A stretch of DNA of 64,000 nucleotides from an uncultured Planctomycetales bacterium. GTDB taxonomy: Bacteria > Planctomycetota > Planctomycetia > Isosphaerales > Isosphaeraceae. Shown here one piece after another: positions 27,781 through 34,738 of this stretch (positions within the stretch are counted from its first letter, which is position 1; every line of letters begins with the position of its first letter). Where the stretch lies: the NCBI GenBank assembly GCA_903926465.1, contig CAIYJE010000141.1:1-64000 (forward strand), in the 5' to 3' direction. Made by a program: the position numbers and the translations under genes. Below the pieces are notes generated by a model. That model searched no databases. It was given only the letters and a program-made list of their open reading frames with translations, and was not told the DNA's origin.

Positions 27781-28200
27781 TCACACGCCTCGGCGGGGAT
27801 GCTCGGAATACGAGGCCTGATTCTTCTCGGTTTCCCAGAAGATCACCTCAACTACGGGCAGCCCCACCTTTTTGGCGTAATTGAACACAAGTTTTGCCAG
27901 GTTTTCCGCGGTCGGGTTGTCATCCATGACAAACACCCGTTCTCCACGATCACGAAGAACCGGGAGCAGCGGATCTTCACGGCTCAGGATCATGGTGTGA
28001 TCCAGAGACTCATCCACCCAGGTCTGCACCAGTTCCTTGATCAAACTGATATCGAGCAGCATTCCATTGGGGTCGAGCTGATCTCCCTCGACCACAATCC
28101 TGGCGATTCCGTTATGTCCATGAAGGTTACGGCACTTCCCCGAATAGTTCATGAGCCGATGGCCGTAACAAAATGGAATGTCGCGGCTGAGTTGAAACAT
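27781..28200 (-). CDS. queD: 6-carboxytetrahydropterin synthase-type enzyme (QueD family)
   Basis: QueD turns dihydroneopterin triphosphate into 6-carboxytetrahydropterin, the second step of queuosine/7-deazapurine synthesis. This 139-residue protein shows HRLMNY (zinc His), CRNLHGHN with the catalytic Cys and two zinc His, LDHTMIL (usual LDH motif) and NPTAENLA. The family also includes 6-pyruvoyl-tetrahydropterin synthases; QueD is more likely in a bacterium. I start at the ATG at 28200, since TCAGGAACG precedes it and the product then begins as the family does. It is divergent from the alpha-CTD gene, with tgt, another queuosine gene, about 2 kb away. Confidence 0.86.
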   Translation of the reverse strand: MFQLSRDIPFCYGHRLMNYSGKCRNLHGHNGIARIVVEGDQLDPNGMLLDISLIKELVQTWVDESLDHTMILSREDPLLPVLRDRGERVFVMDDNPTAENLAKLVFNYAKKVGLPVVEVIFWETEKNQASYSEHPRRGV

Positions 28201-28306
28201 CGTTCCTGACACCTTTTCAAAAGACAGATCACGCGAAGTTCTCAGAAGTATAGGCACCAAGACCGGTGTCCAGGCAAGATCACACGGGGCGACTTCAGAC
28301 GATGGT

Positions 28307-28335
28307 TTGCGTCAACGTCGAGATTTTGCTAAAAT
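28307..28335 (+). promoter_or_regulatory. Candidate promoter of the TPR/alpha-CTD gene
   Basis: TTGCGT (28307-28312) and TAAAAT (28330-28335) are spaced by 17 bases, 86 bases upstream of the ATG at 28422. The -35 box resembles that proposed at 24466. Confidence 0.5.
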
Positions 28336-28421
28336 AATTTCCCTTAAGAAAACCTAACGCCCCGTGGCCCGGTTCAGACGGGGCTAACGGCTTGAACGTG
28401 CGTGCAGCGAGGACAGTTCCG

Positions 28422-29759
28422 ATGCCTGAGCAGATGACCACCGATGTGCGGACATTGCTGGACCGAGATCCTTTTGATGCTTCGGCAGTAGCGGACCTTC
28501 GGGAAGTTCTCGGACGCGACCCCTCTCGATACGTCACGCTTCGTGACGCGGCATCCGCGATCATGGATCGCGAGCGAGGCAAGATGACTCCCACCAGTCA
28601 TCTTCGCCTGGGAATTGCCGACTGCTTGCTGGGTCGGTACCGAAGTTCCCTGGAACACCTGGAAAAGACCAGCGACCTGGGCCTGGCCCAGTACTTTCGC
28701 GGGATCGCTTTCGAGAATCTCCAGCGTTGGCCTGAGGCGGAAGAAGCCTTTGGCGAGGCGGCACGACTGGGCTATGAGGTCAAGCGGTCGGAACTTCGCC
28801 GAATTGGAGCCATGAGACGGTCCGGTAAGGTTGAAGAGGCCCGCAAACATCTTGATAAATCTGCCGCCAAGGCAAGCCCTATCGCCGAATACTACTACCA
28901 GGTAGGCAGCCTGCATGTGTCCGATGGTGATCTCAAGCTGGCAAGCGAAAGCCTTGAGAAGGCCGTGGAACTGGACGGCGATCACACCGAAGCGCTGTTC
29001 GAACTGGCCTACATTAATGACCTGTACGGCAACGATGACTATGCCGTTGACCTTTACAAGCGTTGCATGCAGAAACCACCGGTTCCGGTGGCCGCTTATA
29101 TCAACCTTGGCATTCTTTACGAAGACGATAACAAGTATCGGGATGCCGAAACCTGCTATCGCCGCGTGCTTCAAACTCATCCGAACCATCCCCGTGCTCG
29201 CTTGTTCTCCAAAGACGTTCAAGCTAGCAAGCAGATGTTTGTGGATGAAGATTCCGAACGCTTCAGCGACCAGATGCAGAAGGTGATGCAGGTCCCTGTT
29301 ACCGATTTCGAACTGTCTGTCCGAAGCCGGAACTGCCTGAAGAAGATGAACATCAGGACTCTGGGCGATCTGGCCAGAACGACTGAAGCTCAGCTTCTTT
29401 CCAGCAAGAATTTTGGAGAGACCTCGCTCTCCGAGATCAAAGAGATCATGGGGGCCAAGGGGCTTCGACTGGGCTTGGCCCTTGAAGGAAGCGAACGGCC
29501 AAGCGGTCCGTCTTTCCAGCAGCCTGCCTACGATGACGTTAGCCCCGAAGAACGGGCCCTGCTCTCCAAGTCGATCAGCGAACTGGCGTTCTCTGTTCGT
29601 GCTCGCAAGTGCATGCAGCGCCTGAATATCCAGGCCGTTTCTGACCTTGTTCGCCGCAGCGGTGACGAACTGCTGGAAACCAAGAACTTTGGTGTAACGT
29701 CCCTGAATGAGGTACGCGAACGCCTGAACGAACTCGGTCTCAAGCTCAAGGGTGACTGA
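28422..29759 (+). CDS. TPR protein with two RNA polymerase alpha C-terminal domains
   Basis: The 445-residue protein starts with helical TPR-like repeats (about residues 65-275, e.g. SIAEYYYQVGSLHVSDGD-type units and AAYINLGILYEDDNKYRDAE) and ends in two tandem copies of the alpha-CTD fold, 294-352 and 386-445. Domain 1 has ELSVRSRNCLKK then KNFGETSLSEIKE; domain 2 has AFSVRARKCMQRL then KNFGVTSLNEVRE. By E. coli alpha numbering, Arg265, Asn294, Gly296, Ser299 and Glu302, which contact UP-element DNA, are kept in both; Asn268 only in the first; Lys298 is Thr in both. Hence DNA or regulator binding is plausible. Alpha's assembly domain is absent. Start ATG 28422 follows GAGGACAG. Confidence 0.9.
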   Translation: MPEQMTTDVRTLLDRDPFDASAVADLREVLGRDPSRYVTLRDAASAIMDRERGKMTPTSHLRLGIADCLLGRYRSSLEHLEKTSDLGLAQYFRGIAFENLQRWPEAEEAFGEAARLGYEVKRSELRRIGAMRRSGKVEEARKHLDKSAAKASPIAEYYYQVGSLHVSDGDLKLASESLEKAVELDGDHTEALFELAYINDLYGNDDYAVDLYKRCMQKPPVPVAAYINLGILYEDDNKYRDAETCYRRVLQTHPNHPRARLFSKDVQASKQMFVDEDSERFSDQMQKVMQVPVTDFELSVRSRNCLKKMNIRTLGDLARTTEAQLLSSKNFGETSLSEIKEIMGAKGLRLGLALEGSERPSGPSFQQPAYDDVSPEERALLSKSISELAFSVRARKCMQRLNIQAVSDLVRRSGDELLETKNFGVTSLNEVRERLNELGLKLKGD

Positions 29760-29816: not shown

Positions 29817-29858
29817 ATGCCCTGAGTTCAAGGACTCTTGAAATCTCAGGGCATTTCG
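29817..29858 (+). terminator. Terminator of the TPR/alpha-CTD gene
   Basis: ATGCCCTGAG (29817-29826) pairs with CTCAGGGCAT (29845-29854). The loop holds a second inverted repeat, TTCAAG/CTTGAA. It is followed by TTCGTT, a weak T-tract. Confidence 0.8.
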
Positions 29859-29884: not shown

Positions 29885-31000
29885 GTGACATCCCCGGTTC
29901 ATTTTGAGTTGCTGACGCAGGATCTGGGCACCGCTGGCCGTTTCGGGCGGCTCTACACTCCGCACGGATCGCTGGAAACCCCGGCTTTCATGCCGGTGGG
30001 CACCCAGGCGACGGTTAAAGGCCTGACCCCAGACTGGCTCACGCAACTCGGCACCCGCATGCTTCTGGGCAACACCTATCACCTGGCGCTCAGGCCGGGT
30101 GCTGACGTGGTTGCACAACTGGGTGGGCTTCATTGCTTCATGGGGTGGGATGGCCCAATTCTGACCGACTCTGGCGGCTTTCAAGCCTTCAGTCTGGCCG
30201 CTCGGAACAAGCTGACCGAGGAAGGTGTGACCTTCCGCTCGCACATTGATGGCCGCCAGTTGCAGCTCACACCGGAATCGGCCGTCGAGATCCAGCAGAA
30301 GCTTGGCGCAGATGTGGCCATGTGTCTGGACCAGTGCCCCGCGCTGCCGGCCTCCAAGGAAGAAATCGCCAAGGCCACCCAGCGAACCATACGCTGGGCC
30401 CAGCGCTGCCGCGATGCTCACACACGGGCCGATCAGGCACTCTTTGGCATCGTTCAGGGAGGCAGCCATGCTGACCTTCGGGCCGAATGCGCGGAACGCC
30501 TGATTGAGATGGACTTTCCCGGATACGCCATTGGCGGGGTGAGCGTGGGTGAAAGCCGTGAGGAAGTCCTCAAGGCGCTGGAAGTAACAGCCCCGTTCCT
30601 GCCTGCGAACCGCCCCCGTTACTTGATGGGGGTGGGGCGACCGCAAGACATTCTGGCCGCTGTGGTTCGCGGTATTGACCTGTTTGATTGCGTGTTGCCG
30701 ACGCGGAACGGTCGCAATGCCAGTTGCCTCACCAGCCAGGGGCAGGTCAAACTCAGGAACGCTCAATACAAGCTAGATGATCGTCCGGTGGAAGAAGGCT
30801 GCCCCTGTCCAACTTGCAGCCGATTCAGCCGGGCTTACCTCAGACACCTGTTCATGGCCAACGAAATGCTTGGCCCAATTCTTGCCTCGGCGCATAACCT
30901 GGCCTACATCCATCGCCTGATGGAGCAGGTCCGGCAGGCCATCCGCGACTCTCGGCTTCGCGAGTTCGTGGCCGAAACCCTTGAAGCAATTGGGCCTTGA
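29885..31000 (+). CDS. tgt: Queuine tRNA-ribosyltransferase (tRNA-guanine transglycosylase)
   Basis: Tgt exchanges G34 for preQ1 in tRNAs with GUN anticodons (Asp, Asn, His, Tyr). The 371-residue protein has VGTQATVKGLTPDWL, LGNTYHLALRPG, the DSGGFQ motif with an active Asp, LFDCVLPTRNGRNA with the nucleophilic Asp, and a zinc site CPCPTCSRFSRAYLRHLF near the C terminus. The start appears to be GTG at 29885, since no in-frame ATG fits; the ribosome-binding site is weak (CAGGGCCC). It is 26 bases after the terminator at 29817 and upstream of yajC and secDF, the same order as in many bacteria. Confidence 0.97.
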   Translation: MTSPVHFELLTQDLGTAGRFGRLYTPHGSLETPAFMPVGTQATVKGLTPDWLTQLGTRMLLGNTYHLALRPGADVVAQLGGLHCFMGWDGPILTDSGGFQAFSLAARNKLTEEGVTFRSHIDGRQLQLTPESAVEIQQKLGADVAMCLDQCPALPASKEEIAKATQRTIRWAQRCRDAHTRADQALFGIVQGGSHADLRAECAERLIEMDFPGYAIGGVSVGESREEVLKALEVTAPFLPANRPRYLMGVGRPQDILAAVVRGIDLFDCVLPTRNGRNASCLTSQGQVKLRNAQYKLDDRPVEEGCPCPTCSRFSRAYLRHLFMANEMLGPILASAHNLAYIHRLMEQVRQAIRDSRLREFVAETLEAIGP

Positions 31001-31092
31001 GCATTAGATTGATGTTAAGCAGACCAGGAATTTCGAAACTCTTTTCGGATTTCTGACCTCACGTTCTGACTTTGATTGGGCGAAAGGAACCG

Positions 31093-31503
31093 ATGACCGG
31101 GCTTGCAAACCTTGCGACAATGGTAGTTTCTCAGCAGGCAGCCACGACTAAAACTCCCCCCGCTGGCGCGAAGCCCGGAGCCGACACAGGAGGGAATATA
31201 CTCGTCAACCTGCTGCCGTTTCTGCCCATGGCTCTGCTGTTTTATGTGATGTTATGGCGGCCCCAGCAGCGCCAGGAAAAATTGCGCCGTGAGATGATCT
31301 CGGCTCTCAAGAAGAACGACCGAGTGTTGACCTCTGCCGGCATCTACGGCACGATTGTCCAGATTGACTCGGATAGCGATAAAGTTGTCGTTCGGGTGGA
31401 CGACGACAAGGGGCTGAAACTCACTTTCACACGCAGTAGCATTGTTCGGCGGGCCGATTCCGAGGAATCGAACTCAGGCTCAGCCGGCAGCACGAAGTCG
31501 TGA
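31093..31503 (+). CDS. yajC: Preprotein translocase subunit YajC
   Basis: YajC is the small partner of SecDF in the Sec holotranslocon. The 136-residue product has a signal-like N terminus, one membrane helix (about residues 36-57, LVNLLPFLPMALLFYVMLWR), the RPQQRQEKLRREMI motif after it, and a beta-rich domain with LKKNDRVLTSAGIYGTI and GLKLTFTRSSIVRR. Start ATG 31093 has AAAGGAA 4 bases upstream. It precedes secDF by 196 bases. Confidence 0.95.
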   Translation: MTGLANLATMVVSQQAATTKTPPAGAKPGADTGGNILVNLLPFLPMALLFYVMLWRPQQRQEKLRREMISALKKNDRVLTSAGIYGTIVQIDSDSDKVVVRVDDDKGLKLTFTRSSIVRRADSEESNSGSAGSTKS

Positions 31504-31699: not shown

Positions 31700-34600
31700 A
31701 TGAAGAGCTTTGTGCGTCCATTTGTGCTGATCGGGATCACGGCCCTGCTGGGCTTGCTGGCCGCGTTGCCACCCTCTGAGAAGGTCAAGCTCGGCATTGA
31801 CCTCTCTGGCGGGACGATCCTGGTCTACCAGGCCAAGGAAACGGCCGACAAGACGTTCAACATGGACGATCTGATCACGGCCCTGAAAAAGCGAATCAAT
31901 CCTGAAGGATTGAAAGACATTGTGGTCCGAAAGGTTGGCAACAACCGGGTCGAGATCATTCTGCCCAAGGCCGCCCCGGAAGAAGTTGAAGACATCAAGC
32001 GGCGCATGACGGCCGTGGGCTCCATGCAGTTCCGGATCCTGGCCGACTCTCGTGACGACAACGACGAGCAACCGATTCAGCGAGCGATGGGGGACGGCGG
32101 CCTGCTCAATCCTCCGGCCAAGTATCGCTGGGGCAAGCTGGCCGAAATCGTGGAACGCTCCAGGAAAGATGCGAGCGATACCGCCTGGGCTCGGCTCGAA
32201 AGCAACCGGCTGAGCGATCCTGGCCAGTCTTGGGAGCGAGACCATTACGCCGGCGCCATGGTCACCCTGAAGGGGAAGAGCGCGAACGGAACCCGCATTG
32301 TCTCCTACCCGGTCCTGAGCAACGACCTCACCTCCCTTTTGCTCGATCCTGATCGTGCCACGGTGATGAGCGCAGGCCAAGAATCGGTCAGCCGCCGCCC
32401 TTCGGTTTCTGGTGACTTCACCGAAATTGAGTCTTACACGATCAACCTCAATCCCAGCCGGATCCTTTCAGATCCCAACCTGGCAATTCGTTCAGTTCCG
32501 CGCGGGAATGGTGTGGAAGAGCGGTTCGTTTTGTACAAGGTGGAGCCGGAAAGCCGCAGTGTGACCGGCGACATGCTTGAAAGCGTGTATCCCACCACCG
32601 ACGAAAAGATCCAGCCGGCGGTTGGCTTCATCTTCAAGCCCCAAGGTGCCAACCGGTTCGGTCGCCTCACCCGCGAGTTTTCACCCGGAAACCGCGGTGG
32701 CGACTTTGCCTACCATCTGGCCATTTTGCTAGACGACCAGGTGATGTCTGCTCCCGTGATCCGTCAAGAGATCAGCAATCAGGGGATCATTGAAGGGATG
32801 CCCCTGAAGCAGAGAGACGATCTGATCGACATCCTGCGGGCCGGTAAGCTGCCCGCCAGTATTGATCCGATTCCGCTCCAGCAGGCCAATATCGGTCCAA
32901 CCCTTGGCCGCGACACTATTGAAAAGGGTGTACGAGCGATCGGCTGGTCGATGCTGGTCGTGCCGATTTTCATGATCATCTACTACCGGTTCGCCGGTGT
33001 GGTCTCTGTGATCGCCCTGGTCTTGAACATGATCTTGCTGATCGGTTCACTGGCTTTCACGAATAGCTCGATCACGCTGCCGGGCCTTGCCGGTTTAGCT
33101 TTGACCATTGGTATGGCGGTCGATGCCAACGTGCTCGTATTCGAGCGTATGCGTGAAGAGAAGGAACGGGGTGCCAATCTGGCAACCCAGATCAGGAACG
33201 GCTTCGACCGGGCCTGGACCACCATTCTGGACTCTCACGTAACGACCCTGGTCTCAGGCATGGTGATGTGGTTGATTGGCACCGAAGAAGTGAAGGGGTT
33301 TGCCCTGACGCTGATCATCGGTTTGGCCTGGAACCTGTTCACGGCCGTCTACGTCTCTCGCGTGATCTTTGAATTCGCTTACCGTCAGGGGTGGATCAAA
33401 GAGCTCTCGATGATGAAGCTCATGGGGAACACGAACATCGACTTCGTGGGACCAAGACGATACCTGATGGCTGGGTCACTCGCCCTGATCTTGTTCGGCC
33501 TGTTCGCCTTCTTCAACAACGTCAAGAACAAGTTCAACATCGACTTCACCGGCGGCACCTTGGTGACCGTGGCCCTCGACCCGACCGACTCCAAAATTGC
33601 GTCTCTCGATGACGCAGCCAGGGTCGAATTCGTGCGTGATCAGGCTACCACCTCTGGGCTGCCTAACGTCTCGGTTGAAAGCCTTTCGCTGGAAGGTGAA
33701 AAGAGCGGTACCCGGTTCAACATTCGTACCACCGATGTGAATCCAGGCTCTGTGCAGCAAGCGGTTCTGAAGCAGTTTGGCTCTGCGCTTTCTCGCCTGA
33801 CGATGCAGGTTGGGGCAGCCCAGCCAATTGCCAAGGCCGACACGGCCAAGGCCGATCAGGCCGACCGGTTCGCCGGCGGGACCAGCTATCCGCTCACGTT
33901 TAGCCGTGAAGTTGACCCGGAATTGCTCCGGATCAATTTTGCGAACTACATTCGAGCCATGAATACGGGTCGGCCAGAGGATACCATCACCAATCCCGAG
34001 AGCCGATTCGAGGTGACCCGGGTTCGTAAGGCCGATCAGCCAAGCCCAACCGCTTCGAGCGAAGAATTGATCTTCCGCACGAACATGGATCCAGCGCAGG
34101 CTCAACGGGTGCTGGGTGACCTGGCCACCAGCCTGCCCAATGACCCGGCTCTCAACTTCCTGCGGCTTGAGAACTTTGGTGCCGCTGTGGCCGGAGACAC
34201 TCAGCTCATCGCCATTCTGGCCATTGTGACAAGCTGGGCCGCGATCATCATTTACCTGTGGTTCCGGTTCAAGTCGATCACCTTCGGTATGGCGGCAGTT
34301 ATCGCCCTGGTGCATGACGTGCTCATCGCGCTGGGTGCGGTTGCCCTTTCGCCTTACAAGATTGACCTGCCGATGATCGCCGCCTTCCTGACGATCATTG
34401 GGTTCTCGGTCAACGACACCATCGTCATTTTCGATCGAATCCGTGAAATCAAGGGAAAGACCCCTTATCTCACCGAGGGGATCATCAATGCCGCTGTGAA
34501 CCAGACGCTGAGCCGGACGATTCTGACCTCGTTCACCGCCCTGCTCGTCGTCTTGATCATGTACCTCTTTGGTGGTGAAGCACTCCGAGGATTCTCGTTC

Positions 34601-34738
34601 TGCCTCCTCGTGGGCTTCATCTCAGGTATTTACAGCACGGTCTACATCGCCAGCCCAATCTTGATCGACTGGATGGGCAAGAAGGAAACCTCAGAGCCAG
34701 CCTCGCCAAAAGGCTCGCTGGCCACTGCCGGCAAGTAA
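31700..34738 (+). CDS. secDF: Fused protein translocase subunit SecDF
   Basis: This 1012-residue chain contains both halves of the proton-driven export helper SecD-SecF. SecD part: first helix, LGIDLSGGT (residues 32-39), periplasmic P1 domain, then helices with GLAGLALTIGMAVDANVLVFERMREE. SecF part from about residue 575: NTNIDFVGPRRYLMAGSL, the second first-loop NIDFTGGTLV, and FLTIIGFSVNDTIVIFDRIRE near the C terminus. The conserved Asp and Arg for proton coupling are visible in D/R-rich motifs DANVLVFERMRE and NDTIVIFDRIRE. AGGAA before ATG 31700 supports the start. Fused SecDF also occurs in Gram-positives; here it is one gene. Confidence 0.97.
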   Translation: MKSFVRPFVLIGITALLGLLAALPPSEKVKLGIDLSGGTILVYQAKETADKTFNMDDLITALKKRINPEGLKDIVVRKVGNNRVEIILPKAAPEEVEDIKRRMTAVGSMQFRILADSRDDNDEQPIQRAMGDGGLLNPPAKYRWGKLAEIVERSRKDASDTAWARLESNRLSDPGQSWERDHYAGAMVTLKGKSANGTRIVSYPVLSNDLTSLLLDPDRATVMSAGQESVSRRPSVSGDFTEIESYTINLNPSRILSDPNLAIRSVPRGNGVEERFVLYKVEPESRSVTGDMLESVYPTTDEKIQPAVGFIFKPQGANRFGRLTREFSPGNRGGDFAYHLAILLDDQVMSAPVIRQEISNQGIIEGMPLKQRDDLIDILRAGKLPASIDPIPLQQANIGPTLGRDTIEKGVRAIGWSMLVVPIFMIIYYRFAGVVSVIALVLNMILLIGSLAFTNSSITLPGLAGLALTIGMAVDANVLVFERMREEKERGANLATQIRNGFDRAWTTILDSHVTTLVSGMVMWLIGTEEVKGFALTLIIGLAWNLFTAVYVSRVIFEFAYRQGWIKELSMMKLMGNTNIDFVGPRRYLMAGSLALILFGLFAFFNNVKNKFNIDFTGGTLVTVALDPTDSKIASLDDAARVEFVRDQATTSGLPNVSVESLSLEGEKSGTRFNIRTTDVNPGSVQQAVLKQFGSALSRLTMQVGAAQPIAKADTAKADQADRFAGGTSYPLTFSREVDPELLRINFANYIRAMNTGRPEDTITNPESRFEVTRVRKADQPSPTASSEELIFRTNMDPAQAQRVLGDLATSLPNDPALNFLRLENFGAAVAGDTQLIAILAIVTSWAAIIIYLWFRFKSITFGMAAVIALVHDVLIALGAVALSPYKIDLPMIAAFLTIIGFSVNDTIVIFDRIREIKGKTPYLTEGIINAAVNQTLSRTILTSFTALLVVLIMYLFGGEALRGFSFCLLVGFISGIYSTVYIASPILIDWMGKKETSEPASPKGSLATAGK

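What the first reader, a model, noticed from the sequence alone, without database searches (positions are those of the whole stretch)
28422..29759. TPR protein with two RNA polymerase alpha C-terminal domains and no alpha assembly domain
Two alpha-CTD folds (residues 294-352 and 386-445) sit behind a TPR-like helical part. Arg265, Asn294, Gly296, Ser299 and Glu302 (E. coli alpha numbering), which contact UP-element DNA, are kept in both copies; Asn268 is kept in one and Lys298 in neither. The N-terminal part would bind proteins. This looks like a stand-alone DNA-binding module that could compete with, or replace, alpha at promoters, or tether a partner to promoter DNA. Its own promoter and terminator are visible, so it is a separate transcription unit. 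I know of no described function.
Basis: partly seen in the sequence, partly recalled or inferred. Interest (0 to 1): 0.8.

Follow-up and report, generated by a model that had tools for sequence, protein, structure and literature searches.

The report
Planctomycete TPR protein with paired αCTDs
Almost every planctomycete genome sampled encodes a helical scaffold protein carrying two copies of the DNA-gripping tail of RNA polymerase's alpha subunit, with the DNA-contact residues preserved, which points to an undescribed helper that could bring this tail to DNA separately from the polymerase.

Summary
The 445-aa ORF at 28422-29759 has about seven TPR-like helical hairpins followed by two RNA polymerase alpha C-terminal domains (Pfam E 1.6e-42), and no alpha assembly domain. 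AlphaFold gives mean pLDDT 92.9. The C-terminal part superposes on an alpha-CTD bound to AT-rich DNA at 0.7 Å. It is not a curiosity of one genome: 277 of 294 sampled Planctomycetota genomes, and 153 of the 155 best, hold a strong match. In 75 proteins spread over the phylum, the residues that contact UP-element DNA are among the most conserved in both CTDs, kept about as strictly as in the phylum's real alpha subunits. CTD1 also keeps the acidic D259/E261 pair that touches sigma region 4 in E. coli. The last two TPRs have a conserved groove. The genomes keep a normal rpoA with its own CTD, so the protein adds to alpha rather than replacing it. In about half of the phylum-wide loci it lies directly upstream of ruvA. 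Best reading: a core accessory factor that delivers a pair of alpha-CTDs in trans to promoter DNA and docks a partner through its TPRs. DNA binding is well supported by sequence; the promoter role and partner are inferred. I found no described function.

The parts
28422..29759 (+). TPR plus double alpha-CTD protein, 445 aa, whole gene
28409..28413 (+). GAGGA, probable Shine-Dalgarno, 8 nt before the ATG
   Evidence: read from the sequence
28307..28335 (+). weak promoter-like pair TTGCGT-17 nt-TAAAAT
   Evidence: read by eye; the consensus scan found nothing
28479..29234 (+). TPR-like helical hairpins, residues 20-271; the last two canonical TPRs (189-256) have conserved groove positions
29247..29288 (+). 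helix 276-289 joining the TPR part to CTD1, moderately conserved
29292..29474 (+). CTD1, residues 291-351: R301, N304, N330, G332, S335, E338 = Ec R265, N268, N294, G296, S299, E302; D295/E297 = D259/E261
29490..29546 (+). flexible linker between the CTDs, residues 357-375 (14-47 aa in the family, measured from residue 356 to 382)
   Evidence: low pLDDT; lengths
29568..29750 (+). CTD2, residues 383-443: R393, K396, N422, G424, S427, E430 = Ec R265, N268, N294, G296, S299, E302
29817..29854 (+). terminator-like hairpin followed by a T-rich stretch, about 30 nt before tgt
27781..28260 (-). divergent neighbour, 6-pyruvoyl tetrahydropterin synthase / QueD family
29885..31000 (+). tgt, queuine tRNA-ribosyltransferase, a conserved downstream neighbour
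31072..31503 (+). yajC
31700..34738 (+). secDF fusion

Best explanation
A phylum-wide core accessory transcription factor of Planctomycetota. It is a cytoplasmic TPR scaffold carrying two alpha-CTDs on a flexible linker, so that the pair can grip two neighbouring A+T-rich minor-groove sites, as the two alpha-CTDs of RNA polymerase do on an UP element, but in trans. CTD1 also keeps the acidic pair that can touch sigma region 4, so it could sit next to the -35 element. The groove of the last two TPRs holds a conserved but unidentified protein partner, which is thereby brought to promoters. Shown here: architecture, predicted fold, near-universality in the phylum, selection on the DNA-contact residues, and retention of a normal RpoA. 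Inferred: DNA binding, promoter location, sigma contact, and the partner and its effect.
For: Two alpha-CTDs by profile. The structure model superposes on Caulobacter alpha-CTD bound to AT-rich DNA (9zum, 0.7 A, 50% identity) and matches the alpha-CTD/sigma4/UP-DNA complex 3n97. Across 75 diverse members, DNA-contact positions are 72-75 of 75 in CTD1; in CTD2 R265 is 75 and E302 is 74 of 75. Contact sets are more conserved than random sets of the same domain: P = 1.5e-4 (CTD1), 4.5e-4 (CTD2), against 8e-4 for real RpoA. Arg at 265 in both CTDs is among only seven invariant columns of the protein. Position 259 is acidic in 75 of 75 and 261 in 72 of 75 in CTD1. The own sigma-A keeps the partner Arg of sigma70 R603 (contact described in PMC5511352). 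TPR groove positions N228 75/75, E234 69/75, D235 71/75. Strong match in 277 of 294 genomes.
Against: No DNA-binding, expression or interaction data were found for it. The 261-determinant set is not significantly conserved as a set (P 0.45). Alpha-CTD also binds proteins such as NusA AR2 in E. coli, so conserved contacts do not prove DNA as the ligand. The gene neighbourhood (ruvAB, queH, tgt, yajC, secDF) is not about transcription.
Confidence: 0.5

Rival explanations
1. Protein-binding mimic: the two alpha-CTDs are decoys or docking points for factors that normally bind RNA polymerase alpha-CTD (NusA acidic repeat, activators), and the TPR part sequesters or delivers them.
For: In E. coli NusA-AR2 binds alpha-CTD (PMC4642336). 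The own NusA has one AR-like repeat (TIGR01954 E 4.5e-5, below its cut-off) and an acidic tail. The same conserved residues could serve this.
Against: The whole DNA-contact set is kept, with a basic K/R at 268 in CTD2. The activator-facing 287 determinant shows no special conservation.
Confidence: 0.17
2. DNA-repair or recombination factor working with RuvAB: a helix-hairpin-helix DNA-binding scaffold at branched or A+T-rich DNA.
For: Directly upstream of ruvA on the same strand in 31 of 58 phylum-wide loci, in some with ruvB next; RuvA also carries helix-hairpin-helix domains.
Against: In Isosphaerales, Gemmatales and many Phycisphaerae the gene left ruvA but kept tgt-yajC-secDF or spoIID, while the CTD residues stay conserved. 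This cluster mixes unrelated functions. RuvC is present in 55 of 59 genomes, so no Ruv part is being replaced.
Confidence: 0.15
3. A general nucleoid-organising protein or a transcription-elongation/translation coupler: non-specific A+T-rich DNA binding by the CTDs, with the TPRs holding a ribosome- or membrane-associated partner.
For: Near-universality and single copy; TPR groove conservation; neighbours tgt, yajC and secDF.
Against: Nothing specific. Sigma-facing acids in CTD1 would be unneeded.
Confidence: 0.13

Closest known systems
RNA polymerase alpha subunit (RpoA) C-terminal domain
   Same: Fold, profile (PF03118), DNA-contact residues, and a flexible tether
   Different: No alpha N-terminal assembly domain; two CTDs in one chain; TPR scaffold instead; CTD1 and CTD2 group apart from RpoA CTDs (weak deep support)
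Stand-alone or short accessory 'RNA polymerase subunit alpha' CTD proteins (for example NCBIfam PRK07758, and copies on Sinorhizobium replicons)
   Same: Alpha-CTD outside a full alpha subunit
   Different: No TPR part seen; the short replicon hits cover one CTD length only; not a universal phylum gene as far as seen here
Phage sigma-region-4 plus alpha-CTD fusion (IMG/VR contigs, L213/L214)
   Same: An alpha-CTD moved onto another protein
   Different: Partner is a sigma4 helix-turn-helix, single CTD, on a viral contig
TPR-containing transcription activators such as AfsR (SARP-NOD-TPR)
   Same: TPR part joined to a transcription module
   Different: AfsR activates through a SARP domain (PMC10936776), not alpha-CTDs

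Membership tests
RNA polymerase alpha subunit | alpha N-terminal dimerisation/assembly domain | tested here: not met
   rpoA models match only with their C-terminal part; residues 20-271 are TPR-like helices
RNA polymerase alpha subunit | is the genome's alpha subunit gene | tested here: not met
   the own full-length rpoA is a separate gene on contig C188; the neighbours here are tgt, yajC, secDF
alpha-CTD domain family (PF03118) | profile match above gathering score | tested here: met
   143.5 bits against 23.8, two stretches; all 74 aligned members match
alpha-CTD domain family (PF03118) | helix-hairpin-helix fold of alpha-CTD | tested here: met
   Foldseek best hit 9zum, 0.7 A over 66 columns; prediction, not experiment
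UP-element-binding alpha-CTD | Arg265, Asn268, Asn294, Gly296, Lys298, Ser299, Glu302 surface | tested here: met
   all but K298 in CTD1, all but N268/K298 in CTD2; T298 is the phylum norm in RpoA
UP-element-binding alpha-CTD | binds A+T-rich DNA | not testable with these tools
   needs EMSA or footprinting
TPR proteins | 34-residue repeats with the TPR consensus | tested here: met
   TPR_2 E 5.6e-20; consensus and conserved groove positions in 189-256
RuvABC system component | conserved linkage with ruvA | tested here: inconclusive
   adjacent in 31 of 58 loci, unlinked elsewhere in the phylum

The most novel reading that the evidence does not exclude
Planctomycetota carry a phylum-specific general transcription factor that supplies a second, polymerase-independent pair of alpha-CTDs in trans to UP elements and sigma region 4, coupling basal promoter strength to a TPR-bound partner.
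Probability: 0.35. Interest if true: 0.85.

Novelty: new variant of a known kind. Interest (0 to 1): 0.66.

Why it matters
Alpha-CTD is the part of RNA polymerase through which UP elements and many activators act, and in the systems described it comes attached to alpha. A whole phylum that keeps a second, detached pair on a protein-binding scaffold, with the DNA surface under selection about as strict as in alpha, suggests an unrecognised layer of promoter control in a group whose transcription is poorly studied. It gives a single-copy target that can be tested directly in Planctopirus limnophila, where transposon libraries exist (PMC10632474).

Tried and rejected
RuvC replacement (RuvC is found elsewhere in 55 of 59 genomes). 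Replacement of alpha (RpoA CTDs intact). Loss of DNA binding from the missing K298 (T is normal in the phylum). Plasmid or phage spread of the architecture (no TPR-plus-CTD match; viral contigs gave only matches to the CTD part). The origin of the CTDs by tree stays open: CTD1, CTD2 and RpoA CTDs form three groups, but with 61 columns the deep branches are weakly supported. A search of other phyla was not possible with genome handles; in the one scan of genome contigs nearly all of the 80 best hits carry Planctomycetota labels (two say only 'uncultured bacterium'), and weaker hits were not shown. Literature searches for a described function found none; the library is incomplete.

Full report
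What is there. The ORF at 28422-29759 encodes 445 aa. Pfam gives RNA_pol_A_CTD twice (E 1.6e-42) and a set of TPR models over residues 130-261. NCBIfam rpoA models match only with their C-terminal part. AlphaFold2 on an alignment of 74 family members gives mean pLDDT 92.9: helical hairpins to residue 271, a joining helix 276-289, CTD1 to about 356, a low-confidence linker, and CTD2 to 443. A separate model of residues 272-445 has as its best PDB match Caulobacter alpha-CTD on AT-rich DNA (9zum, 0.7 Å over 66 columns, 50% identity), and also matches 3n97, alpha-CTD with sigma region 4 on UP/-35 DNA.

How widespread it is. The own genome has three PF03118 matches: these two and rpoA. In 294 genomes drawn over the phylum all have some match. 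Counting by hand from that table, 17 have only weak matches (E above 1e-30, the level an RpoA CTD alone can give). So 277 of 294 are strong, and 153 of the 155 genomes of at least 90% completeness and at most 5% contamination; the two exceptions are fragmented assemblies. The pattern of one rpoA CTD plus two CTDs in a second frame recurs genome after genome. A scan of GTDB genome contigs returned 241 relatives. The 80 best carry Planctomycetota labels, apart from two named only 'uncultured bacterium'. Plasmid and phage collections gave no place that joins TPR and CTDs. Restriction to the phylum is therefore likely but not proven.

Selection on the DNA surface. In 75 proteins from across the phylum CTD1 has R265 75/75, N268 72, N294 75, G296 75, S299 74, E302 74. 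CTD2 has R265 75/75, N294 69, G296 70, S299 66, E302 74, with K or R at 268 in 63. Only seven columns of the 74-row alignment are invariant, and they include the Arg265 equivalents of both copies. The contact set is more conserved than random sets of positions in the same domain (P 1.5e-4 for CTD1, 4.5e-4 for CTD2); the phylum's real RpoA CTDs give 8e-4. CTD1 is more conserved (mean pairwise identity 71%) than the RpoA CTDs sampled (55%) or CTD2 (46%).

Sigma contact. In E. coli alpha D259/E261 touch sigma70 R603 (PMC5511352). CTD1 has D or E at 259 in 75 of 75 and at 261 in 72 of 75. The own sigma-A ends ...RQIEAKAVRKLQHPVRSRQLEGFLESTG, which keeps the arginine at the R603 place (alignment by eye). 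As a set the 261 determinant (258, 259, 261) is not significantly conserved (P 0.45), so this is a lead only.

TPR part. N-terminal repeats are variable, and some lineages carry much shorter N-terminal parts (340-370 aa frames). In the last two canonical repeats the concave-surface positions are conserved beyond the TPR consensus: F193 72/75, D at 200 58/75, N228 75/75, E234 69/75, D235 71/75. This points to one conserved partner.

Neighbourhood. In several lineages, among them L184, L192 and L202, the order is TPR-CTD, ruvA, ruvB, queH, spoIID-like, tgt, yajC, secDF. Many lineages keep only TPR-CTD followed by ruvA. Many Phycisphaerae keep TPR-CTD, spoIID-like, tgt, yajC, secDF. Isosphaerales and Gemmatales, including this window, keep TPR-CTD, tgt, yajC, secDF. 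By profile, ruvA is directly downstream in 31 of 58 phylum-wide loci; a looser clustering put a ruvA-cluster ORF downstream in 36 of 60 loci. RuvC is present elsewhere. Because this cluster mixes functions and the gene is kept when ruvA moves away, a Ruv role is a rival rather than the leading view.

Expression in this genome. A strong hairpin followed by a T-rich stretch lies at 29817-29854, only about 30 nt before tgt. The -35/-10 pair at 28307-28335 is poor (3 of 6 and 5 of 6) and was not found by the consensus scan.

Mechanism. Two alpha-CTDs on a flexible linker of 14-47 aa can occupy two neighbouring A+T-rich minor-groove sites, as the pair in RNA polymerase does. Since RpoA keeps its own CTD, this would be an additional pair brought in trans, with CTD1 possibly beside sigma region 4 and the TPR groove holding a partner. 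Architecture, conservation and predicted fold are shown; DNA binding is strongly suggested; promoter location, partner and regulatory effect are inferred. The main rivals are a protein-binding mimic (NusA AR2 binds alpha-CTD in E. coli, PMC4642336; the own NusA has one AR-like repeat), a RuvAB partner, and a general nucleoid or coupling protein.

Novelty. Alpha-CTDs outside alpha are known as short stand-alone proteins, and a viral contig fuses one to sigma region 4, so the kind exists. A phylum-wide, single-copy TPR protein with a conserved pair is a new variant for which I found no described function.

Noticed in passing
L214:2776-3399 (also L213), IMG/VR contigs: A viral-contig protein of 207 aa fuses sigma-70 region 4 (E 3.9e-14) to an RNA polymerase alpha-CTD (E 3.7e-16): a sigma4-alphaCTD regulator beside a gene that looks like S-adenosylmethionine synthetase.
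   Followed up: partly
phylum-wide loci L146-L203; L184:5752-13182: Conserved cluster ruvA-ruvB-queH-spoIID-like-tgt-yajC-secDF behind the TPR-CTD gene in some planctomycete lineages; shorter versions in other groups.
   Followed up: partly
window:27781-31000: Queuosine-type genes on both sides: a 6-pyruvoyl tetrahydropterin synthase (QueD family) divergently upstream and tgt downstream, with queH in the same cluster in other planctomycetes.
   Followed up: no
window:29817-29885: Strong terminator-like hairpin ends only about 30 nt before the tgt start, leaving little room for a tgt promoter; perhaps an attenuator or read-through site.
   Followed up: no
plasmid hits H5-H8 (Sinorhizobium replicons): Short alpha-CTD-like matches of about 70 codons, one annotated as RNA polymerase subunit alpha, on large Sinorhizobium replicons.
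   Followed up: no
G058 contigs C343 and C26: One planctomycete assembly has two full-length rpoA matches over the cut-off; a second alpha or contamination.
   Followed up: no
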